Of a DNA stretch of 42,863 bases, positions 7,794 to 42,863 are shown in pieces; positions within the stretch are counted from its first letter, which is position 1, and each line of letters begins with the position of its first letter. The position numbers and the translations under genes were made by a program. The notes below the pieces were generated by a model. The model was not told the DNA's origin. It did no database searches and was given only the letters and a program-made list of their open reading frames with translations. Source of the stretch: a virus; the IMG/VR virus record IMGVR_UViG_3300037961_000404, positions 1 to 42,863 of that record. One strand, written 5' to 3'.

Positions 7794-9392
7794 TTATATT
7801 TTTTGTCCAGTTACCCAAGAGATAACTCTTTTGGTTGTTTTTGATACAGATTTAACTGTTTTGTTTTCTAAAAAATCCAATGCATCAAACTTCTTACTAA
7901 CAGGAGGTCTAGCTTTATTTATAGCATACCATAAGCCATCAAGTATGTCATCGTTCTTTCCTTTTGGAAACTGAAACATTTCATCAACTAAACTATTGTG
8001 ACTTCTTTTTATAAACATTTTTCTTCTATTTACTATTGGTGCTAGCAATGACTCTAACCTATCTTCTTTTTTTATACCGCTAGGAGGCCTAACACCTAAT
8101 GCTATGCCCGGAGCAACCTTTCTTTCTTTACCAGATAAACTATTGACAGCATCTTTTATTATACCCTGAGCACCAACATGTTCTACATTAACTCTTTTTA
8201 CAGGAGAAAACTCTCTAGCGTATTCTAGTATTTGTTCTGGCATATCATATAAAGGTATATGCTCTCTCATGTAATCAATGACATATATGTTTCTATCGCT
8301 ATCTATACCTATTACCATAATAATCTGATAGTCACTAGACTCCGTAGCTTCATAAGCTAAGTCAACACCCATGTAAATATTTACAGGTACAGCATCTTTT
8401 GTGTTTACAAGGTATGCATATCCATCCCTGCTTTCAAACTCATGGTCGTAATACTGAAGTCTGTCTGTTTTAAACTTTGCATTTTCTAGGTCTCTAGCTT
8501 CATTTAAGTATTCTTGTGCAAACTTATGTGCTAAGCCTACATCTTCAAACCTTCTTCTTATATCTAAAAGCTTTTCTTTTGAAAAGTAACTAGGCCAAAG
8601 AACGGTACCATCTGTATCTATAGCCTTATGATACATAACATCCCATGCATATCCTCTCTTATCTCTCTGTGCTTCTATATATCCATCGTATATACTTTGC
8701 AAGAATGAATCATAGTGAACTATTGTACCAATTAACCATATTGAACCTTCATTACCTTTTGAGTTTTCAAGTGCAGGTTCTACTGTTGACATAACCCATT
8801 CTTTAATCTCTCTTCTTCTGTCTGGTGTTTTTGTATTTAACTCTGATTCAAAGTCATCCAATATAATCTTAGTATATCTTAATCCTAACTGAGAACGACC
8901 ACGAAGTCTTTGAGATGTACCTTTTGCTATAACCCTATCACCTTTACTAGTTGTAAACTCTTTTTCAGTCCACTTACTTCCTTGTATGCTACCAAAGTAA
9001 TAATTAAGTGCAGGGTTTGTTTCTATGTGGTTTTGTAAATATTTAATATGGTCAATAGCCTGAGACTGCTCCTCAGCAACCCAAGCAATAAATTCTTTCT
9101 TTCCCTCTGGATTAAAGTAAAGATGGTATAGTAATGCTGTCTTAGCTAATGTAGACTTACTGTGTCCCCTAGGAAGTATAATACAGTTTCTTTTCTTAGT
9201 CTCATCTAATAGTAAGTTATTTAATTCATAGTGATATGCGGCAGGAGTTGACTTCATAAAGTCATCTGGTAAGAACAACTGACCAAAGGATATAATATCT
9301 TTTCTTGCTAACTCAAGAACTCTCTCTTTGTCAGACACATTGTTTTTGTTTATGTTTACTTTCTTAGGTTTAGGCACTCTTCTGATAACCAA
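7794..9392 (-). CDS. terL: terminase large subunit
   Basis: A 532-residue packaging motor. The ATPase half has Walker A LPRGHSKST (73-81), Walker B KIILDDFE (175-182), an adjacent GTSQRLRGRSQLG, and the coupling motif WLIGT (about 220). The nuclease half has the acidic motif MGVDLAYEATESSDYQ (about 340) and a late KNDDILDGLWYAIN (about 480-500). It cuts concatemeric DNA and pumps it through the portal. The start shown is TTG and overlaps the GGCT gene by 37 bases; a GTG 15 bases downstream is an alternative. The last sense codons (VTGQKI) end at 7797, and the portal frame follows in the same frame. Confidence 0.95.
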   Translation of the reverse strand: MVIRRVPKPKKVNINKNNVSDKERVLELARKDIISFGQLFLPDDFMKSTPAAYHYELNNLLLDETKKRNCIILPRGHSKSTLAKTALLYHLYFNPEGKKEFIAWVAEEQSQAIDHIKYLQNHIETNPALNYYFGSIQGSKWTEKEFTTSKGDRVIAKGTSQRLRGRSQLGLRYTKIILDDFESELNTKTPDRRREIKEWVMSTVEPALENSKGNEGSIWLIGTIVHYDSFLQSIYDGYIEAQRDKRGYAWDVMYHKAIDTDGTVLWPSYFSKEKLLDIRRRFEDVGLAHKFAQEYLNEARDLENAKFKTDRLQYYDHEFESRDGYAYLVNTKDAVPVNIYMGVDLAYEATESSDYQIIMVIGIDSDRNIYVIDYMREHIPLYDMPEQILEYAREFSPVKRVNVEHVGAQGIIKDAVNSLSGKERKVAPGIALGVRPPSGIKKEDRLESLLAPIVNRRKMFIKRSHNSLVDEMFQFPKGKNDDILDGLWYAINKARPPVSKKFDALDFLENKTVKSVSKTTKRVISWVTGQKI

Positions 9393-9727
9393 TCTTGTTT
9401 AGGAACTTTTTCAAACACCTTAGTTCCTTGCATAAGAGCAGGGCCAATAGTATACATCCAAGCATCTATCACCTCATCTTTCTTATAAACCTTAACAATT
9501 CTTCTTTCATAAAGACCCGTGTCTATACTTTCATATATATCATAACCTGCTATGTCTGCTTTATCTACATCCATAACCTCAACAACCATACCTTTTGCAT
9601 TCCTATCATGCAAAGCGGCAGGAAAATGCCTGTGTCCCGGAAAGACTAAAGAAAACCCATTGACACTATATGTGTCTCGTTTTCCATTTCTTAGTGTTCC
9701 GTATACTGCTAACTTATTCGTCTTCAT
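9356..9727 (-). CDS. AIG2/GGCT-like gamma-glutamylcyclotransferase
   Basis: A 123-residue protein when started at the ATG at 9727; a longer frame to 9802 runs through the upstream gene and is less likely. It has the family's N-terminal substrate loop AVYGTLRNG (7-15) and the region with the probable catalytic Glu, DIYESIDTGLYERRIVKVY (Glu66). These enzymes release 5-oxoproline from gamma-glutamyl amines, as in glutathione turnover or BtrG-type deprotection. It lies between TerS and TerL, an unusual site. Pfam amidoligase-2 proteins are known to pair with AIG2 cyclotransferases in fungi, so it may act on the product of the ligase cassette at 15.2-19.5 kb. The fold is well supported; the substrate is unknown. 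Confidence 0.8.
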   Translation of the reverse strand: MKTNKLAVYGTLRNGKRDTYSVNGFSLVFPGHRHFPAALHDRNAKGMVVEVMDVDKADIAGYDIYESIDTGLYERRIVKVYKKDEVIDAWMYTIGPALMQGTKVFEKVPKQDWLSEECLNLRK

Positions 9728-9905
9728 CAAAGTCTTCTTTAAAGTTCCAATATTCTTGTAAATCATCAATTGGAAACATTTGGTGTTCATAAAACAACTC
9801 ATATATCTCAGTTGCTATTAATTGAACATCCATATCGTTATCCAAGCTCCTATTAGAATTGTTGGCATGCTCTAAGACTTGAAGGCATATTTCGTATAGA
9901 TTCAA
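9714..9905 (-). CDS. 63-residue acidic hypothetical
   Basis: A small acidic protein (MNLYEICLQVLEHANNSNRS and an EDFDEDE terminus), probably all helical. It overlaps the end of TerS by 4 bases (ATGA type) and the start of the GGCT gene by 14 bases, so it belongs to the same coupled unit. Nothing suggests a catalytic role. It could be a small packaging accessory or a host-interaction protein. Confidence 0.6.
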   Translation of the reverse strand: MNLYEICLQVLEHANNSNRSLDNDMDVQLIATEIYELFYEHQMFPIDDLQEYWNFKEDFDEDE

Positions 9906-14643: not shown

Positions 14644-15066
14644 ATGCAAACATTTCTACCACACGAAGATTTCTCTATCTCTGCTAGTATGCTAGATGAT
14701 AAAAGACTAGGTAAGCAGAGAGTAGAAGCATTACAGATATACAATGTATTAGTAGGTAATCTTACCAAGAAAGGTAAACCCTACAAAGGTTGGCTAAGAC
14801 ATCCTGCCGTTCTAATGTGGGATGGTCATGTAGAAGCGTTGTTACTCTACAAAAACAAGATGATAGAAGAGTGGATACTTAGAGGTTTCAATAATACAAT
14901 GGAACTTGTAGGTCTGCCAGATTCTATAGAGATGCCCCCTTGGTTGGGCGATGATAGAGTACACGCTTCTCATAGAAGCAATCTACTACGAAAAGACTTA
15001 GAGTATTACTACTCTAGGTATAAATGGCAAGAGCCAATAGACATGGAGTACTATTGGCCTATCTAA
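14644..15066 (+). CDS. MSMEG_6728 / pyrimidine-dimer glycosylase-family protein
   Basis: A 140-residue protein matching the MSMEG_6728/Pyr_excise family related to T4 endonuclease V. Landmarks are MQTFLPHEDF at the N-terminus, LDDKRLGKQRVEALQI (17-32), HPAVLMWDGHVEAL (53-66) and WLGDDRVHASHRSNLLRKD (about 104-122). T4 DenV acts through its N-terminal residue on UV dimers. Whether this branch keeps glycosylase activity is not settled to my knowledge. In a marine phage it would suit repair of sunlight damage. It precedes the ligase cassette but need not belong to it. Confidence 0.8.
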   Translation: MQTFLPHEDFSISASMLDDKRLGKQRVEALQIYNVLVGNLTKKGKPYKGWLRHPAVLMWDGHVEALLLYKNKMIEEWILRGFNNTMELVGLPDSIEMPPWLGDDRVHASHRSNLLRKDLEYYYSRYKWQEPIDMEYYWPI

Positions 15067-15085: not shown

Positions 15086-15241
15086 ATGAAAGAGATACTG
15101 CACCATCTACTTGGTTCCTGTGGAGAAAGTCATGTCAGTCTACTGACTATACTTTCTAGTGGTGTTGTTATTATGTACAGAGATTATATAGTAGCAATAC
15201 TCAAGGAGGCGAGAGATGTTTTCAACTATGTATTCAAATGA
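15086..15241 (+). CDS. 51-residue membrane-associated peptide
   Basis: Coding for MKEILHHLLGSCGESHVSLL and on to VFK, with one hydrophobic segment (about 19-40, LLTILSSGVVIMYRDYIVAI). AAGGAGAATGT precedes the ATG. Its stop lies inside the start of the first amidoligase gene (26-base overlap), so their translation is likely linked. LLGSCGESH resembles the start of other small phage membrane peptides. Function unknown; it might anchor or accompany the ligase cassette. Confidence 0.55.
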   Translation: MKEILHHLLGSCGESHVSLLTILSSGVVIMYRDYIVAILKEARDVFNYVFK

Positions 15242-17045
15242 TGTCTACTTACTAGATACAACTAATGCTAGATATACTAGTGCTAGTAGTTTCAAAGAGA
15301 TAGATATTCTCTACGACTATGATGTCTATGCTAATGACAGACAGCTAGAGTCTTATCATTTTAAGACTATATCATCTAGAGTAGCTAAGATACTAGACGT
15401 AGCTAAGATAGAAGATTGGAATAACTCTAACTCTAAGTATGTACTAGGTGTTCTAATAGAAACTAAAAAAGGTAGTAATAGAATATTATGCAGAGCTACC
15501 GATCTATTATATTCAGATAGACGATTGTACAATCTAACATTTGAGTATAACGTAGTAGATGAAATAAACTATAAGTCAGTCTATTACAGCAATATTCTAC
15601 ATAGTAGATATGAAGATAGTCTAGATATGGTAGAATACCTATTACGCCCTGTTGGAACTAGAATTACTAGTGAGGTTAAACCTTTACATAAGAAGATACA
15701 AGATTTGACATTTGTAGATAATACTTATGTAAGTGAGCCTACTGTTAATAGATTCTATCTACAAGGTCAATGGCAACAAATATTATCTTTGGCTATTAGA
15801 AAAAATACTAGAAGTAACAGGCTCTACCATACCTGTACTAAGTGTAGCTACATAGTAAATGATACATATGTACACAATGAAGACAAGTACTGTCACACTT
15901 GCTACAATACTACAGTAGAAAAATGCGATGCTTGTCATACAGATTACAAGTTAACTGACTTAGTAGGTATATTTAGTGTAGAAGACAGAAACACTAGAAG
16001 CACATACCTAGACTTAGATATTACTAAGTGTTGCAAGTCTTGTTGGGACAGCCTAATTATATCTTGTGAGCATTGTAGACGCTCTGATGTAATAGACTTT
16101 GACCAGCTTAGAGACTTAGAACATCCTACTGATAGGAGACATCTACTAATAGACTTTGCTAGAAACCATGAAAACTATCATAATATTTTAGGTCGTAGGT
16201 ATTGCACCTCTTGTTCCGATCTAAAGCTACAGTCTTATCTAGCTAGTCCTTTTAGACACAGAAGGTTACCTATGAAACTAGCAACTAAGAGTGAGTACAA
16301 TAGATACATAGGTATAGAGAGTGAGGTTATAACTTGCTACGATGACTCTGAGGACTATGTAAATGCAGTAGGTGAGCCTAGCTACTTCGAGGTAATAGAA
16401 GATGGCTCTCTAAGTTCTGGAGGTGTAGAGTTTGTAACTCATAAGCCTATCATAGGTGATACAGTAGTAGAAGCACTAGACAGTTTAGAGCAGACACATA
16501 GAGAAGATGACAACTATACAGATGAGAGCTGTGGTATACATATACATATGAACGCACTAGACTTTAACTTTACAGAGATACAGTCTCTACTAATGATTAT
16601 GTCTAGATTACAAGGTTATATCTATAGAGGATTACCTAGTAATAGAACAGATAACACATATTGTAAAGAGATACCTATGAGTCCTAGAAAAATATCTAGA
16701 ATGAGAAGTCTAAGTCATCTAGTAAACGAATACTACAAAAGTGCTAATACTAACCTTACTGATAATAAGTACAATGATGCTAGGTACTTTGGTACTAATA
16801 TACACGCTAGGTTCTACTTAGGTACAATAGAATTTAGATACCATGAGGGTAGTGTCTACTCTAGACCTATTAAAGAGTGGATACAATTTCTCAATAGAAT
16901 TATGACAACGGCTACAAGATTACACAGAGACCCTGTGCTTTGTAGCAGAATTATTTCTGACAAAATACCAACTATGGATATACTAAAAGACATAACAGGT
17001 GTATTCGGAGCTGAGTATATAGACAGGAGAATAGATAACAACTAA
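15216..17045 (+). CDS. zinc-module amidoligase (amidoligase-2 family), long form
   Basis: A 609-residue protein after an ideal ribosome site (AAGGAGGCGAGAG). Residues 1-200 are an unknown beta-rich N-terminal domain. Residues about 205-345 carry repeated Cys pairs (CTKC, CHTC, CDAC, CCKSC, CEHC, CTSC) as in LIM or treble-clef zinc fingers. Residues about 362-600 are the amidoligase-2 domain: YIGIESEV (362), GGVEFVTHKP, SCGIHIHMN (about 437), ARYFGTNIHARFYLGTIEFR (about 522-541). This fold is related to glutamine synthetase/GCS ligases and is expected to make amide bonds using ATP. A class II amidotransferase follows 17 bases later. The substrate is unknown. Confidence 0.85.
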   Translation: MFSTMYSNDVYLLDTTNARYTSASSFKEIDILYDYDVYANDRQLESYHFKTISSRVAKILDVAKIEDWNNSNSKYVLGVLIETKKGSNRILCRATDLLYSDRRLYNLTFEYNVVDEINYKSVYYSNILHSRYEDSLDMVEYLLRPVGTRITSEVKPLHKKIQDLTFVDNTYVSEPTVNRFYLQGQWQQILSLAIRKNTRSNRLYHTCTKCSYIVNDTYVHNEDKYCHTCYNTTVEKCDACHTDYKLTDLVGIFSVEDRNTRSTYLDLDITKCCKSCWDSLIISCEHCRRSDVIDFDQLRDLEHPTDRRHLLIDFARNHENYHNILGRRYCTSCSDLKLQSYLASPFRHRRLPMKLATKSEYNRYIGIESEVITCYDDSEDYVNAVGEPSYFEVIEDGSLSSGGVEFVTHKPIIGDTVVEALDSLEQTHREDDNYTDESCGIHIHMNALDFNFTEIQSLLMIMSRLQGYIYRGLPSNRTDNTYCKEIPMSPRKISRMRSLSHLVNEYYKSANTNLTDNKYNDARYFGTNIHARFYLGTIEFRYHEGSVYSRPIKEWIQFLNRIMTTATRLHRDPVLCSRIISDKIPTMDILKDITGVFGAEYIDRRIDNN

Positions 17046-17062
17046 CAAAAGGAGAAAATAGT

Positions 17063-18073
17063 ATGTGTGGAATCTTTGGATTCGCTAAGACTAGTGGTAG
17101 ACAATCTGACAACCAGATGAGGATTCTTAGAGATGTATTCACCGAGCTAACAGATGAGTCTTCTATTCGTGGTACGGATAGTACAGGTTTTTCTATTATT
17201 GATTCAGATAATAGATATACCTACAAGACGCTTGTAGATTCATCTAGCTTGGTAGATATGCATGACTTTGATGCCAATGTTCTATCAAGAATAACAAGAG
17301 ACACTACCATTGTAATGGGTCACGTTAGACTAGCTACACATGGTAAGGTCAAAGTAACTAATGCACATCCATTTACAGTAGGAGATGTAGTAGGTGTACA
17401 CAATGGTGTCATCTACAACTACAATCAAGTAGCTAAGTCTATGGGTAAAGGTGTACCCGAAGTAGACTCGCAGGTATTGTTTCAGTCTCTTAATAGAAAC
17501 AAGATGCATGAAGCCTTCGAGAATATAGAAGGTGACTTTGCTCTGACATGGGTAAAGGATAGTAATAGAAAGGTACACCTAGCTAGAGAGTCTGGTAGAC
17601 CTATGGTAGTATCTTATTGGAAGAAGGCTAGGATATTGTTTTGGGCTTCTACTAGAGATATTATGAGAGACGCTATGCTTAGAGCTGGTCTAGTTCTACC
17701 AATCAAGAATGTACCCGAGGACTATATCTATACGTATGATGTAGATAGTTTTGATAGTAAGCCTAACAGAGAGCAAGTACAGTTTGAGACCTTGTCTCAA
17801 TACGGCTACAAGACTTCTATGTACGGAGGTTGGTCTTGGAGAGATGAGTATACTAGAGGTGCAAGTCCTGCTACTATGGCTCTACCTGCTACCTGTGATA
17901 GTAGAAAAGAGATGTGTGAGTATTGCTATGAGTGGATAGATCAAGAAGAAATATGGACAGATGCAGATAACAAGAGAGTATGCTTTGACTGTGAGTACTT
18001 TGTAGATAAAGACACTTATAGTAATGAAGATAAGAGGGAGGTGAAAGATGACAGATCGTGGTTCTCATTCTAA
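17063..18073 (+). CDS. stand-alone class II glutamine amidotransferase with zinc knuckle
   Basis: A 336-residue Ntn-hydrolase glutaminase. MCGIFGFA puts the nucleophile Cys at position 2 after Met removal. GHVRLATHG (86-94) supplies the glutamine-binding Arg, HNG (113-115) the oxyanion hole, and EVDSQ (133-137) the substrate-binding Asp. The glutaminase fills about residues 1-230. There is no synthetase, PRPP or isomerase domain as in AsnB, PurF or GlmS. The C-terminus (about 275-312) has two Cys pairs (CEYC, CFDC), matching the zinc modules in the flanking ligases. It should release ammonia from glutamine for a partner ligase. Confidence 0.9.
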   Translation: MCGIFGFAKTSGRQSDNQMRILRDVFTELTDESSIRGTDSTGFSIIDSDNRYTYKTLVDSSSLVDMHDFDANVLSRITRDTTIVMGHVRLATHGKVKVTNAHPFTVGDVVGVHNGVIYNYNQVAKSMGKGVPEVDSQVLFQSLNRNKMHEAFENIEGDFALTWVKDSNRKVHLARESGRPMVVSYWKKARILFWASTRDIMRDAMLRAGLVLPIKNVPEDYIYTYDVDSFDSKPNREQVQFETLSQYGYKTSMYGGWSWRDEYTRGASPATMALPATCDSRKEMCEYCYEWIDQEEIWTDADNKRVCFDCEYFVDKDTYSNEDKREVKDDRSWFSF

Positions 18074-18374
18074 GAAGAAGGTTATACTAGTAGGATTTCC
18101 TAACCCTATCAAGCTAAAGTCTAAGAAGTTTGTAATAGAGACTTTGTACAATAGAGCTAAGAAGAATCCTTTTCTAGTAGGCTCTTCTTATGAAGAGTAT
18201 CTAGACTTTCTACTCAAGCAGATAGATGTGATGGGTTCTATTGATGCAAAGATAGACAGAGACTCTGATACATTAGAAGAAGATATATACGATACTCTTA
18301 AGAAGATGAATTGGCTAAAGGTGATAAATGCTTTTGTAGTTGGTATTATAGAAGCTACTAACATAGGAGTCTAG
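18048..18374 (+). CDS. 108-residue hypothetical inside the ligase cassette
   Basis: Begins MTDRGSHSKKKVILVGFPNP after GGGAGGTGAAAG, overlapping the amidotransferase by 26 bases; it ends two bases before the second amidoligase. It is Lys-rich at the start and helical elsewhere (SYEEYLDFLLKQIDVMGSID), with a hydrophobic C-terminal helix (WLKVINAFVVGIIEATNIGV). No domain is recognised. The tight placement makes it a likely working part of the cassette, either an adaptor or a substrate. That is inference. Confidence 0.65.
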   Translation: MTDRGSHSKKKVILVGFPNPIKLKSKKFVIETLYNRAKKNPFLVGSSYEEYLDFLLKQIDVMGSIDAKIDRDSDTLEEDIYDTLKKMNWLKVINAFVVGIIEATNIGV

Positions 18375-18375
18375 T

Positions 18376-19542
18376 ATGCCAGTAGAAGAGAGAGAAAGAG
18401 CAGTAGAACCACCTGAACAAGTAGAGTGTTGTGATTGTAATGACTCTGTAGACAGAGCAGATACTATATTAGTTAATGGAGAGAGGTATTGCGACCCATG
18501 TCATAGTGACAATTTCTACTCATGTAATGGTTGTAGTGATAGCGTTCATAATGACGATGTTTACTTCGCATATCAAGACCCCTACTGTGAACATTGCTAC
18601 TATGAATCTTTTGAGAACTGTTACGACTGTGAAGAGCCTGTAGATAGAGATGAGGTTATTTGGAGAAGTGACAATCCCTACTGTTCTGATTGTGCACCTA
18701 GCGACATACATGATATGCTATACAATTTAGAAGATAAAGAGCCACCTGCTTGTTCTAGAAAAGCAGAGTCCTTTGAGTTTCCTGTTCGTAGACTTGTAGG
18801 AGTAGAGGTAGAATGTCTAATTCCACATATAGACGCTTTGGATACACCTAGCTTTTGGACTAGTACAAATGATGGTTCTATTAACAGCGAAGAAGGATAT
18901 GATGGTATAGAGATGGTAAGCTACCCTGCTAGTGGAGACCTACTACTAGAAAGTATAGATAATCTAATTGCATGGTCTAATGATATAGGTGCAGTAGTTA
19001 ATAGAAGTTGCGGCCTACATGTACACTTCAACTCATTAGACCTAACTGCTAGACAGGTAGCTCATGTAGGACTAGTGTATAAGTACTTTGAAGAGATACT
19101 AAAAGGTATGATGCCTAACTCTAGGCAGAGTTCTAATTGGTGCAAGGACTTTCCTATTCCTAAAAATCAACTTAGATATATTACAGAAGAGAGCGAGTTG
19201 ATAGAACTGTATTACGACTACATGGATTCTTACCCTAGTACAGATAAGTATAACGACGCTAGATACTGTGGTCTTAACATACATTCTAGATACTATCATG
19301 GTTCTCTAGAGTTTCGTCTACACTCTGGAACTATAAACAAAACCAAGATACTTAATTGGATACAGATACTAAATCGTATAATAGATATGGCTATAGACCT
19401 AGAGAGGTACACAGGAGATGAGTACGATAAGTGGATTAAGAAACCACCTATTACTCACATGGTAAGTACTTTTGGAGTAGAGCTATGTGATTATATTAAC
19501 AAGAGAACTAGTAAGTTCAAAGGAGGAAGAGTAAATGAGTAG
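18376..19542 (+). CDS. zinc-module amidoligase (amidoligase-2 family), short form
   Basis: A 388-residue paralogue of the 609-residue protein. Residues about 16-117 are three repeated LIM-like zinc modules (CCDC, CDPC, CNGC, CEHC, CYDC, CSDC). Residues about 140-370 are the ligase: LVGVEVECLI (140), DGIEMVSYPA, SCGLHVHFN (about 212), NDARYCGLNIHSRYYHGSLE (about 293-312), then FRLHSGT and ILNWIQILNRI. It lacks the 200-residue N-terminal domain of the long form. Two diverged ligases around one amidotransferase suggests either successive additions or a heteromeric complex. The stop overlaps the next ATG (ATGAGTAG). Confidence 0.85.
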   Translation: MPVEERERAVEPPEQVECCDCNDSVDRADTILVNGERYCDPCHSDNFYSCNGCSDSVHNDDVYFAYQDPYCEHCYYESFENCYDCEEPVDRDEVIWRSDNPYCSDCAPSDIHDMLYNLEDKEPPACSRKAESFEFPVRRLVGVEVECLIPHIDALDTPSFWTSTNDGSINSEEGYDGIEMVSYPASGDLLLESIDNLIAWSNDIGAVVNRSCGLHVHFNSLDLTARQVAHVGLVYKYFEEILKGMMPNSRQSSNWCKDFPIPKNQLRYITEESELIELYYDYMDSYPSTDKYNDARYCGLNIHSRYYHGSLEFRLHSGTINKTKILNWIQILNRIIDMAIDLERYTGDEYDKWIKKPPITHMVSTFGVELCDYINKRTSKFKGGRVNE

Positions 19543-37655: not shown

Positions 37656-38036
37656 TTAATCTCTTATTTCTATATGAACTAAGTCATCAAAGCCATTGTC
37701 TTTTACATCTCCATCACTATCCCAATCACCACCCCATCTTATCTTTAGACCTAGTTGATGAGCTATACCTCTTATCATTCCACCCATATAGTGAAATCCA
37801 TCTCTATTTTTCCAGTCTATTGGATAGGGAGCTAAATCTACCGCCTTACCCTCCATGTGCCTTGAATACTTTACTTTCGTGGCTCCCTTTTCCAATAACT
37901 CTTTTTGTCTTTCTTCACTTCGTAAACCTTCTATAATAGTAACATCCATTATCTTAATCAACTCATCTAATACTTTGATAAGTCTATGGTCTACACCTTT
38001 TAATCTTTCTTTACTTCTTTTACCAAACTTAGGCAT
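37656..38036 (-). CDS. M15 endolysin (L-Ala-D-Glu / D,D-peptidase type)
   Basis: A 126-residue zinc peptidase matching the T5-type M15 endolysins. The motif SRHMEGKAVDLAP provides the zinc ligands His60 and Asp67, and LVHIEIR the third (His121), with Asp118 a likely catalytic base and GLRS (37-40) near the N-terminal substrate site. It would cut peptide stems of peptidoglycan to free progeny. It has no signal peptide, so it needs a holin. Small membrane proteins at 39075-39858 are the candidates. Confidence 0.9.
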   Translation of the reverse strand: MPKFGKRSKERLKGVDHRLIKVLDELIKIMDVTIIEGLRSEERQKELLEKGATKVKYSRHMEGKAVDLAPYPIDWKNRDGFHYMGGMIRGIAHQLGLKIRWGGDWDSDGDVKDNGFDDLVHIEIRD

Positions 38037-41116: not shown

Positions 41117-41137
41117 ACCTAATCAATCCAATTAGGT
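41117..41137. other. hairpin across the fiber stop
   Basis: ACCTAAT (41117-41123) and ATTAGGT (41131-41137) form a perfect 7-base stem with a 7-base loop that spans the fiber stop codon (41132-41134). In the late RNA no U-run follows, so attenuation or mRNA processing is more likely than full termination. Confidence 0.4.
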
Positions 41138-42863
41138 AAAGTATGTTCCACTTAATGTTACAAGGTTCGCAACTATACTGCTTCCTGTGGCTAAATCAGC
41201 AACTTGCAATTCTGAATTAGCAACATCAGCATTTCCATCTCTTATATAAAGAATAACATTTGTTGTACCGTTACCAACTTCAGCCTCGCTTGGGTTGTCA
41301 TCATTAAATAACCTTGTATCTCCTAATGCTAAAGCACATTTTGCACTTGCTGTATAAGGTAATCCTCCAAGTTTTATACTCCCAGAACCTCCTGTACTTT
41401 CAAATGCATTATTATAAAAACTTATTGTAATATGAACAGCATTTCCTATTTTAACATATTTACCAACTCGATTTTGATAAGTTATAGTTCCAGAAAAAGA
41501 ACCTGTACCAGCTACCCAAGCTGGAGTAAAGGTTCCCTCTTCATATTCTGTACCAGCATCATATGGAGCATTTTCTAAAGTTGCACCATTTACAGTTCCA
41601 TGTAAATCGTTACCAGATTTATCTCCCCATACCTTTTCACCAGCAGAACTACCATCGTATTCAGCTACTGCACCGATTCTTACTAATGTAAAGTTATCAA
41701 TAAGTAATTCATCATTAGCACTTCCACCTGTTGGGCCGTCTGCTCTTGATGGATAAATTGTTACTTCAATAGAACCGCTTGAAGTTGCTGTAAATTCACT
41801 TGTAACTGTTGCAAATGATGTGCTTGTTAATTGTTGATTTCCAGAATCATAACCAGCCCATGTAACTCTTCCTTTGTTTCCTTGAACTGCTTTATAATCA
41901 TATTGGATTCTATACCTTGCACCTTTTACTGCTGTTACTGCTAATACACCTCTATCATTTGCTCCTCCATCATCAGTAACTAACCTTAAAACATTTCTAC
42001 TATCAGCAGAATAGTTTGCTGTAATACTACCAAGTCCACCACCAGCGGCCCAATTATTAGAACCATCCATAGTTGAATCTGTACCTGTTACTAATGATGC
42101 CGTACTAGCACCTTTGTATTTATAAGGTACACTTGCACCACTTGATTCATCTTTTACTTCATCGGCAGTTAATACATTATTGTACAACCTTACACAAGCT
42201 AACTCACCATAAAAATCATTTGATGTTCCACCTTCATTTCCACCCAAAAACAAAGGTTCAGCACTATTATACATAGAGCTTTCACTTGTTCCTGTTGCTA
42301 TTGACACTCCATTTCTATAAATAATAACTGCACCAGCATCATAAGTAACTGCAAAATGATTCCATGTAGCAAGGCCTGTAAGTGCTGGCGATGAAACAGT
42401 TGTTGCATTTGATCCATTTGAAGAGGCAACAAAACTTAACTGCTCACTATCGCTAAAAAATATTAAATACTCTCTTTTAGCTGATGTATGCCATTTACCT
42501 ATGACTGTATGTGCAGAATCAAATGAGCTATTAGGCATCCTTACCCAAAAAGAAAAAGATGCTTTAGTGCCAAAGCTAAATAGACTTGTGTCTACTCCAT
42601 TATTTAATGAAATATAATCATCCGTACCATCGAACCTATAATATGGAGAAGACATAGAGCTAGCTACATGATTTGAATTACCTCTAGACAATACATAATC
42701 AGCATGAACTGTAGCACCACTATCTTCTGCCATATAAACATCAGTTACATCTGCATCACCAAGAGTTACTGAGTTATCTGATACTCCTGTAGCACTAAAT
42801 CCAATTACTGTCTGATTAGTACCAGCATTTGATGATGGATCAGTTGCACTTCCAATTAAAGTA
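41132..42863 (-). CDS. LamG-domain tail fiber / receptor-binding protein (5' end at 1-83)
   Basis: The frame is open to the right edge and continues at base 1 if the ends join, giving 604 residues. Before the internal ATG at 42733 the sequence QTVIGFSATGVSDNSVTLGD, then DVTDVYMAED, is typical of phage fiber beta repeats. After that, residues about 85-280 form a LamG/concanavalin-like jellyroll (FSFWVRMPNSSFDSAHTVIG; TWNHFAVTYDAGAVIIYRNG). The C-terminal 250 residues hold carbohydrate-binding-like and other beta-rich regions. It would contact host surface sugars. A start at 42733 would cut the fiber repeat and is not favoured. Confidence 0.85.
   Translation of the reverse strand, partial: TLIGSATDPSSNAGTNQTVIGFSATGVSDNSVTLGDADVTDVYMAEDSGATVHADYVLSRGNSNHVASSMSSPYYRFDGTDDYISLNNGVDTSLFSFGTKASFSFWVRMPNSSFDSAHTVIGKWHTSAKREYLIFFSDSEQLSFVASSNGSNATTVSSPALTGLATWNHFAVTYDAGAVIIYRNGVSIATGTSESSMYNSAEPLFLGGNEGGTSNDFYGELACVRLYNNVLTADEVKDESSGASVPYKYKGASTASLVTGTDSTMDGSNNWAAGGGLGSITANYSADSRNVLRLVTDDGGANDRGVLAVTAVKGARYRIQYDYKAVQGNKGRVTWAGYDSGNQQLTSTSFATVTSEFTATSSGSIEVTIYPSRADGPTGGSANDELLIDNFTLVRIGAVAEYDGSSAGEKVWGDKSGNDLHGTVNGATLENAPYDAGTEYEEGTFTPAWVAGTGSFSGTITYQNRVGKYVKIGNAVHITISFYNNAFESTGGSGSIKLGGLPYTASAKCALALGDTRLFNDDNPSEAEVGNGTTNVILYIRDGNADVANSELQVADLATGSSIVANLVTLSGTYFT

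What the first reader, a model, noticed from the sequence alone, without database searches (positions are those of the whole stretch)
15216..19542. Phage cassette: zinc-module amidoligase, class II glutamine amidotransferase, zinc-module amidoligase
Seen: two proteins with amidoligase-2 signatures (GIESEV/GVEVEC, SCGIHIHMN/SCGLHVHFN, NIHARFYLGTIEFR/NIHSRYYHGSLEFR) flank a stand-alone Ntn glutaminase with intact Cys2, Arg89, Asn114-Gly115 and Asp135. All three proteins carry added Cys-pair zinc modules. Known: amidoligase-2 proteins are predicted ATP-dependent amide-forming enzymes that neighbour glutamine amidotransferases in bacteria. Inferred: the glutaminase supplies ammonia (or a gamma-glutamyl group) to ligases held in one complex through their zinc modules, modifying a phage or host peptide, protein, metabolite or DNA base early in infection. 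To my knowledge no phage pathway of this layout has been described in the laboratory.
Basis: partly seen in the sequence, partly recalled or inferred. Interest (0 to 1): 0.88.

Follow-up and report, generated by a model that had tools for sequence, protein, structure and literature searches.

The report
Phage glutaminase–amidoligase cassette, new variant
This uncultured virus of bacteria carries a tightly conserved four-gene set (two related amide-bond-forming enzymes, a glutamine-splitting enzyme and a small unknown protein), plus a distant gene that trims gamma-glutamyl groups; it is a distinctive new version of a phage gene cassette already predicted to alter the host cell wall, and nobody has tested what it does.

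Summary
ORFs 15216-17045 and 18376-19542 are Amidoligase_2 proteins, 17063-18073 is a class II glutaminase with all catalytic residues, and all three carry four-Cys zinc modules. (1) A small basic helical protein, ORF108 (18048-18374), lies between the glutaminase and second ligase. It is the most constrained cassette gene. All 66 viral loci found with its profile have a ligase next to it, and all but two truncated ones have the glutaminase. (2) A gamma-glutamyl cyclotransferase (GGCT) lies at 9356-9802, beside the terminase. It recurs in 31 of 37 related records. In a 27-phage sample it occurs in 15 of 17 with an Amidoligase_2 and 0 of 10 without.

The first ligase models as glutamine-synthetase-like, nearest YbdK. 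The system is a derived relative of the published phiEco32/LUZ24/RIO-1 'peptidoglycan modification' cassette, so the kind is known. Here the PF14395 ligase and ATP-grasp are absent, the ligase is duplicated, both copies carry three zinc modules, and ORF108 is new.

Most likely: a glutamine-fed, ATP-dependent amide or gamma-glutamyl ligase complex acting on a host envelope peptide or related metabolite, with GGCT trimming gamma-glutamyl products. The chemistry is moderately supported; the target is unknown; DNA modification is unlikely. Verdict: new variant of a known kind.

The parts
15216..17045 (+). AmL1: 609 aa; unknown N-terminal domain (aa ~1-200), three CxxC...CxxC zinc modules (aa 207-333), C-terminal Amidoligase_2 / GS-like ligase domain (aa ~360-570)
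   Evidence: Pfam 2.7e-25; AF2 pLDDT 86.5, Foldseek YbdK E 5.7e-6; invariant E368, E370, D396, E405, H442, H444, R477, R523, N528, H530, R532, E539, R541, H543 in 32 homologues
15834..16214 (+). zinc modules of AmL1 (C207/210-226/229; C237/240-273/276; C284/287-330/333)
   Evidence: each Cys conserved in 26-32 of 32 homologues
17063..18073 (+). GAT: 336 aa class II (Ntn) glutamine amidotransferase with C-terminal zinc module
   Evidence: GATase_6 1.5e-18; catalytic residues invariant in 29 homologues; GlmS glutaminase domain match
17915..17992 (+). zinc module of GAT (C285/288-307/310)
   Evidence: 29 of 29 homologues
18048..18374 (+). ORF108: small (usually 97-119 aa), mostly basic, predicted helical protein, start overlapping the end of GAT, with conserved KLKSKK..LY.RAKKNPF..SYEEY core and hydrophobic C-terminus
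   Evidence: found in all 66 loci of the A3 scan, beside AmL2 in all and GAT in all but two truncated loci; omega 0.02-0.12; none of the relatives sought was found in bacterial/archaeal genomes; good ribosome-binding site
18376..19542 (+). AmL2: 388 aa; three N-terminal LIM-like CxxC...CxxC modules and Amidoligase_2 domain (aa ~138-346)
   Evidence: Amidoligase_2 7.1e-23, LIM 28.5 bits; invariant G142, E144, E146, D166, E179, H215, H217, R250, R296, N301, H303, R305, E312, R314, H316 in 33 homologues
18427..18693 (+). zinc modules of AmL2 (C18/21-39/42; C50/53-71/74; C82/85-103/106)
   Evidence: 28-33 of 33 homologues
9356..9802 (-). GGCT: gamma-glutamyl cyclotransferase (PF06094 GGACT), immediately upstream of and overlapping the terminase gene; likely start at MKTNKLAVYGTLR
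   Evidence: domain at 9386-9706, E 1.2e-11, same family in 31 of 37 related records; YGTL(R) ORF beside terminase in 75 of 80 related loci, with conserved Y-x-x-YE region

Best explanation
The cassette encodes a glutamine-fed, ATP-dependent amide-forming enzyme system of the phage's early region, working on gamma-glutamyl-type chemistry. Shown: a catalytically complete class II glutaminase; two paralogous GS-like ligases with intact active-site motifs; an almost obligatory small partner protein; and a GGCT that tracks the ligase across phages. Inferred: GAT hydrolyses glutamine with Cys2 and passes ammonia (and/or glutamate) to AmL2, and to AmL1 where present. The ligase activates a carboxylate with ATP and forms an amide or gamma-glutamyl bond. 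The zinc modules hold GAT, ORF108 and ligase together, with ORF108 as an adaptor or substrate-recruiting subunit. The two ligases have different substrates or act in sequence. GGCT removes gamma-glutamyl groups as 5-oxoproline, trimming or recycling the product. The most likely target is a host envelope peptide (carboxyls of peptidoglycan stem peptides) or a small gamma-glutamyl metabolite. The system descends from the same kind of toolkit as the phiEco32/LUZ24/RIO-1 'peptidoglycan modification' cassette.
For: Families and residues. Fold nearest YbdK, then GshF and glutamine synthetases and phage amidoligases including tf and CW02. Gene order AmL1-GAT-ORF108-AmL2 in dozens of contigs. GGCT in 31 of 37 related records; in a 27-phage sample, 15 of 17 with Amidoligase_2 and 0 of 10 without (one-sided Fisher about 8e-6 by hand, records not fully independent). 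Purifying selection on all four genes. All four cassette starts have ribosome-binding sites, and the genes lie in a + strand block with DNA-metabolism genes. In phage SU10, which carries a related set, the glutaminase, ATP-grasp enzyme and YtfP/UPF0131 protein are among six early products seen by mass spectrometry (PMC4281155).
Against: No biochemical test exists, to my knowledge, for any phage Amidoligase_2. A complex is not shown: no gene fusions were seen and no multimer could be modelled. Ammonia use is assumed from the family. GGCT is not in the operon and its own substrate is unknown. Two sampled Amidoligase_2 phages lack a detectable GGCT (W10, W15). The proposed target is carried over from a hypothesis about a different cassette. 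The global TM-scores in the fold search are low because only the ligase domain matches.
Confidence: 0.55

Rival explanations
1. Cell-wall modification specifically: the ligases amidate or add residues to peptidoglycan stem peptides, altering the envelope so that other phages cannot superinfect.
For: Published hypothesis for the related podovirus cassette (PMC5498523; PMC10580990 citing Iyer 2009). Glutamine-dependent amidation of peptidoglycan is known in bacteria (MurT-GatD, PMC3267633, listed). GGCT and, in some phages, a C26 gamma-glutamyl hydrolase accompany the cassette.
Against: No experiment on any phage was found. The window cassette lacks two of the enzymes on which the published pathway rests, the PF14395 ligase and the ATP-grasp enzyme. 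No transmembrane or export signal was identified, so only cytoplasmic precursors would be reachable. The host is unknown.
Confidence: 0.3
2. Auxiliary nitrogen or glutathione metabolism: the enzymes move nitrogen and gamma-glutamyl groups among host metabolites to feed phage synthesis.
For: Phage-ZRK32 with glutaminase, amidoligase, glutathione synthase and GGCT genes increased host growth with nitrate or ammonium (PMC10945688). Nearest fold YbdK is a gamma-glutamyl-cysteine-type ligase. GGCT is a classic gamma-glutamyl-cycle enzyme.
Against: That study did not test the genes. The elaborate zinc modules and the almost obligatory ORF108 suggest a specific macromolecular partner rather than free metabolites.
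Confidence: 0.15
3. Protein conjugation: ORF108 is the substrate, carrier or tag, modified at a lysine or at its C-terminus by the GS-fold ligases (loosely like Pup-PafA), with GGCT removing gamma-glutamyl from lysine side chains.
For: ORF108 is small, basic, lysine-rich, more conserved than the enzymes (omega 0.02-0.12), with invariant Lys and a conserved C-terminus, and was found only beside the ligase. PF06094 includes enzymes acting on gamma-glutamyl-lysine (established knowledge).
Against: The C-terminus ends mostly in Val, Gly, Ala, Ser or Thr, not Glu; the predicted fold is helical and of low confidence (pLDDT 63); no peptidase or proteasome partner; L306 keeps GAT and a zinc-module ligase without a detectable ORF108.
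Confidence: 0.1
4. DNA base hypermodification: the ligase adds amide-linked groups to a modified base of the phage genome.
For: The cassette lies among DNA-metabolism genes here and beside primase/helicase genes in several other phages.
Against: Phage tf carries related genes and its DNA is cut by RsaI, HpaI, EcoRV, SmaI and HaeIII and sequenced normally (PMC3517423). No base-modifying enzyme providing a handle was recognised among the scanned window genes.
Confidence: 0.05

Closest known systems
Podovirus 'peptidoglycan modification cassette' (phiEco32, LUZ24, tf, RIO-1, PSA-HP1; PMC5498523, PMC3890496; Iyer 2009 and Hardies 2013 as cited there)
   Same: Amidoligase_2 + class II glutaminase + GGCT in the early region; published as a predicted gamma-glutamyl/peptide ligase pathway
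   Different: No PF14395 COOH-NH2 ligase in 21 window-lineage records and no ATP-grasp in 18. Amidoligase duplicated. Paired zinc modules on both amidoligases (none of 16 sampled phage amidoligases outside this group has them). ORF108 instead of the ~190-aa hypothetical protein. GGCT moved beside the terminase. The ligase groups with Bacillus/Arthrobacter/Porphyromonas-phage forms, not with the LUZ24 type
GlmS/PurF-type class II glutaminase domain (PDB 1xff)
   Same: Fold family and catalytic residues
   Different: Stand-alone, with a C-terminal zinc module and no synthase domain
YbdK / GshF / glutamine synthetase carboxylate-amine ligases (PDB 1r8g, 3ln7)
   Same: Predicted fold of the AmL1 ligase domain
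   Different: About 13-14% identity; zinc modules and an extra N-terminal domain; reaction not known
Uncultured Caudovirales phage 'LIM domain containing protein' / 'Amidoligase enzyme' (BFVD A0A6J7X2B6, A0A6J7X5D3)
   Same: Deposited viral proteins with matching predicted structure and similar length, so proteins of this architecture are probably already in databases
   Different: No description of the operon or function was found; their domain content was not checked residue by residue

Membership tests
Pfam Amidoligase_2 (PF12224) | score above gathering cut-off (22 bits) | tested here: met
   90.1 and 82.2 bits
Pfam Amidoligase_2 (PF12224) | glutamine-synthetase-like fold with intact active site | tested here: met
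   AmL1 model: YbdK, GshF, glutamine synthetases; motif residues invariant in both paralogues. AmL2 not modelled
Pfam Amidoligase_2 (PF12224) | ATP-dependent amide formation | not testable with these tools
   no assay
Class II glutamine amidotransferase | N-terminal Cys nucleophile plus Arg, Asn-Gly and Asp of the glutamine site | tested here: met
   Cys2, Arg89, Asn114-Gly115, Asp135 invariant in 29 of 29; aligned to GlmS
LIM domain | score above Pfam cut-off and double four-ligand zinc finger | tested here: inconclusive
   AmL2 28.5 vs 22.9 bits, hits to solved LIM proteins; plain CxxC-CxxC repeats could also be other zinc ribbons or treble clefs
phiEco32/LUZ24/RIO-1 peptidoglycan modification cassette | Amidoligase_2 + GATase II + GGCT | tested here: met
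phiEco32/LUZ24/RIO-1 peptidoglycan modification cassette | PF14395 COOH-NH2 ligase | tested here: not met
   0 of 21 window-lineage records; 5 of 6 comparison phages match
phiEco32/LUZ24/RIO-1 peptidoglycan modification cassette | ATP-grasp enzyme | tested here: not met
   0 of 18 window-lineage records; 4 of 4 held-out cassette phages at E < 1e-63
GGCT/GGACT (PF06094) | score above cut-off; YGTLR motif and catalytic Glu | tested here: met
   E 1.2e-11, over cut-off; YGTLR and Y-x-x-YE conserved; assignment of the Glu as catalytic rests on family knowledge

The most novel reading that the evidence does not exclude
ORF108 is itself the acceptor or carrier: a small phage protein activated or amidated/gamma-glutamylated by the two zinc-module ligases with the glutaminase as nitrogen source and GGCT as remover. 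That would be a new phage peptide-conjugation system unrelated to known tags.
Probability: 0.1. Interest if true: 0.85.

Novelty: new variant of a known kind. Interest (0 to 1): 0.55.

Why it matters
Phage amidoligase/glutaminase cassettes occur in many cultured phages and have been predicted since 2009 to modify something in the host, yet no product is known. This lineage reduces the system to a small set (GAT, ORF108, AmL2, GGCT) that could be tested in one tube, and shows an almost obligatory small partner protein that had not been noticed. The GGCT association narrows the chemistry to gamma-glutamyl bonds, which tells an experimenter what to look for.

Tried and rejected
ORF108 as homologue of the ~190-aa protein that sits next to the amidoligase in LUZ24-type cassettes: the ORF108 profile found nothing in the cassettes of 16 such phages while ringing at 1e-31 to 1e-47 in its own lineage (one marginal hit, E 0.005, lies outside the cassette). 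ORF108 fold: no significant match. ORF108 fused to AmL2 in L306: no profile match; L306 simply lacks it. Bacterial counterparts: 70 Amidoligase_2 loci in genomes carry no zinc modules and no ORF108, and only 1 had a glutaminase and 4 a GGCT nearby by my profiles. A terminase-based control for co-variation within the window's own lineage failed: the 80 loci kept were too close. LUZ24-type ATP-grasp enzymes score poorly in Pfam, so absence was tested with a purpose-built profile. The 2009 and 2012 primary papers could not be read.
Full report
CHECK OF THE OBSERVATION. The window is a 42,863-base uncultured virus record with phage terminase, portal, capsid and DnaB genes. Pfam assigns Amidoligase_2 to 15216-17045 (2.7e-25) and 18376-19542 (7.1e-23), GATase_6 to 17063-18073 (1.5e-18), and LIM to the N-terminus of 18376-19542. 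Six CxxC pairs in each ligase (three modules) and two in the glutaminase (one module) are conserved in nearly all homologues.

TWO MISSED PARTS. Between glutaminase and second ligase, overlapping the former, lies a 108-aa gene (18048-18374). In the viral contigs fetched with the glutaminase as query, the order AmL1-GAT-ORF108-AmL2 is nearly constant down to about 36% glutaminase identity. A separate scan with the ORF108 profile found 66 loci. In these ORF108 always precedes AmL2 and always follows GAT, except in two loci cut off at the contig end. A scan of bacterial and archaeal genomes found none, with the limit that the scan needs a short conserved pattern. ORF108 is the most constrained gene of the four (omega 0.02-0.12; others 0.13-0.58). 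It is small, mostly basic, has a conserved hydrophobic C-terminus and is predicted helical with low confidence. No fold or sequence relative was found. The second missed part is a gamma-glutamyl cyclotransferase (PF06094) on the minus strand at 9356-9802, beside the terminase gene; the family is present in 31 of 37 related records. A YGTL-motif ORF occurs beside the terminase in 75 of 80 related loci.

VARIATION OF THE CASSETTE. AmL1 is absent, with room upstream, in L122, L129, L135 and L137, and only one Amidoligase_2 is found in these whole records and in that of L130. L279, L287 and L293 likewise show no AmL1 upstream of GAT. L306 has only GAT, without its zinc module, and a zinc-module ligase, with no detectable ORF108. 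The usual core is therefore GAT-ORF108-AmL2, with AmL1 as an addition. In the ligase tree AmL1 and AmL2 together form one clade (99/92), apart from the LUZ24/SU7/phiM6 type and nearer to forms in Bacillus, Arthrobacter and Porphyromonas phages. That fits a duplication inside this lineage. The AmL1/AmL2 split has moderate support (72-79% of bootstrap trees).

STRUCTURE. AmL1 was modelled with a 32-sequence alignment (mean pLDDT 86.5). Foldseek against the PDB ranks YbdK first (prob 1.00, E 5.7e-6), then a bifunctional glutathione synthetase and glutamine synthetases. Against viral models it finds phage amidoligases, including those of tf and CW02. Only the ligase domain matches; the N-terminal 200 residues remain unexplained. 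AmL2 was not modelled and rests on sequence.

GAMMA-GLUTAMYL CHEMISTRY. I searched 27 phage records for Amidoligase_2 and GGCT. Sixteen were chosen by amidoligase or glutaminase, eleven by terminase similarity. GGCT was found in 15 of 17 with an Amidoligase_2 and in 0 of 10 without. One terminase-chosen record proved to have both. The records are not fully independent, so the hand-computed Fisher value (about 8e-6) is indicative. Together with the YbdK-like fold this makes gamma-glutamyl bond making and breaking the most economical reading of the chemistry.

COMPARISON WITH THE KNOWN. Podoviruses such as phiEco32, LUZ24, tf, RIO-1 and PSA-HP1 carry a cassette of gamma-glutamyl amidoligase, second amidoligase, ATP-grasp, glutaminase and GGCT, published as a 'peptidoglycan modification cassette' (PMC5498523), with a suggested role against superinfection (also PMC10580990). 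I read such cassettes in LUZ24, Vibrio 1.208, KZY1, SU7, phiM6, Lyrsu01 and others. The window lineage lacks the PF14395 ligase (0 of 21 records) and the ATP-grasp enzyme (0 of 18, against 4 of 4 held-out cassette phages). Zinc modules on the amidoligase were absent from all 16 comparison proteins, although several of their glutaminases have C-terminal Cys pairs. Zinc-module ligases beside a glutaminase occur a little more widely (L307, L310). It is thus a new variant of a known kind.

MECHANISM AND LIMITS. Shown: domains, residues, gene order, constraint, GGCT association. Inferred: GAT supplies ammonia or glutamate to the ligases within a complex held by zinc modules and ORF108; the ligases make an amide or gamma-glutamyl bond using ATP; GGCT trims. 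The target is not known. Peptidoglycan precursors or a gamma-glutamyl metabolite are most plausible from precedent. DNA is unlikely by analogy with tf, whose DNA is cut by five restriction enzymes (PMC3517423). The most novel reading, ORF108 as the modified carrier or tag, is not excluded, but L306 and the C-terminal residues weaken it.

Noticed in passing
window 14644-15066 (+): Pyrimidine-dimer DNA glycosylase (T4 endonuclease V-like, PF03013, 7e-22) directly upstream of the cassette; a similar ORF stands directly upstream of GAT in relatives without AmL1 (L129, L135, L137).
   Followed up: partly
window 37656-38036 (-): M15 family peptidase (D-Ala-D-Ala carboxypeptidase-like, PF13539), a likely endolysin.
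   Followed up: no
window 41132-42733 (-): Protein with a concanavalin A-like lectin domain (PF13385, 1.7e-25), possibly a tail or host-binding protein.
   Followed up: no
L306:4974-7683: Variant cassette: glutaminase without its zinc module overlaps a zinc-module ligase with an extended C-terminus; no ORF108 detected and no AmL1.
   Followed up: partly
L310:5743-12281: Another phage contig with three zinc-module amidoligases and one glutaminase, interspersed with small genes, apparently an independent expansion of the same pairing.
   Followed up: no
L012 and L024 (contig IMGVR_UViG_3300030101_002855): One 63,940-base record carries two cassettes, two terminases and two GGCTs: probably two related phage genomes joined in assembly.
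   Followed up: no
record of L119 (G036): The AmL2 domain matches in two pieces in different open frames: frameshift or sequencing error.
   Followed up: no
L066-L073, L219, L221, L226: In LUZ24-type cassettes a ~190-aa protein of unknown function, with a weakly conserved V-x-YKG-x-x-VG motif and no Pfam match, lies immediately upstream of the amidoligase in most phages read, the same relative position as ORF108.
   Followed up: partly
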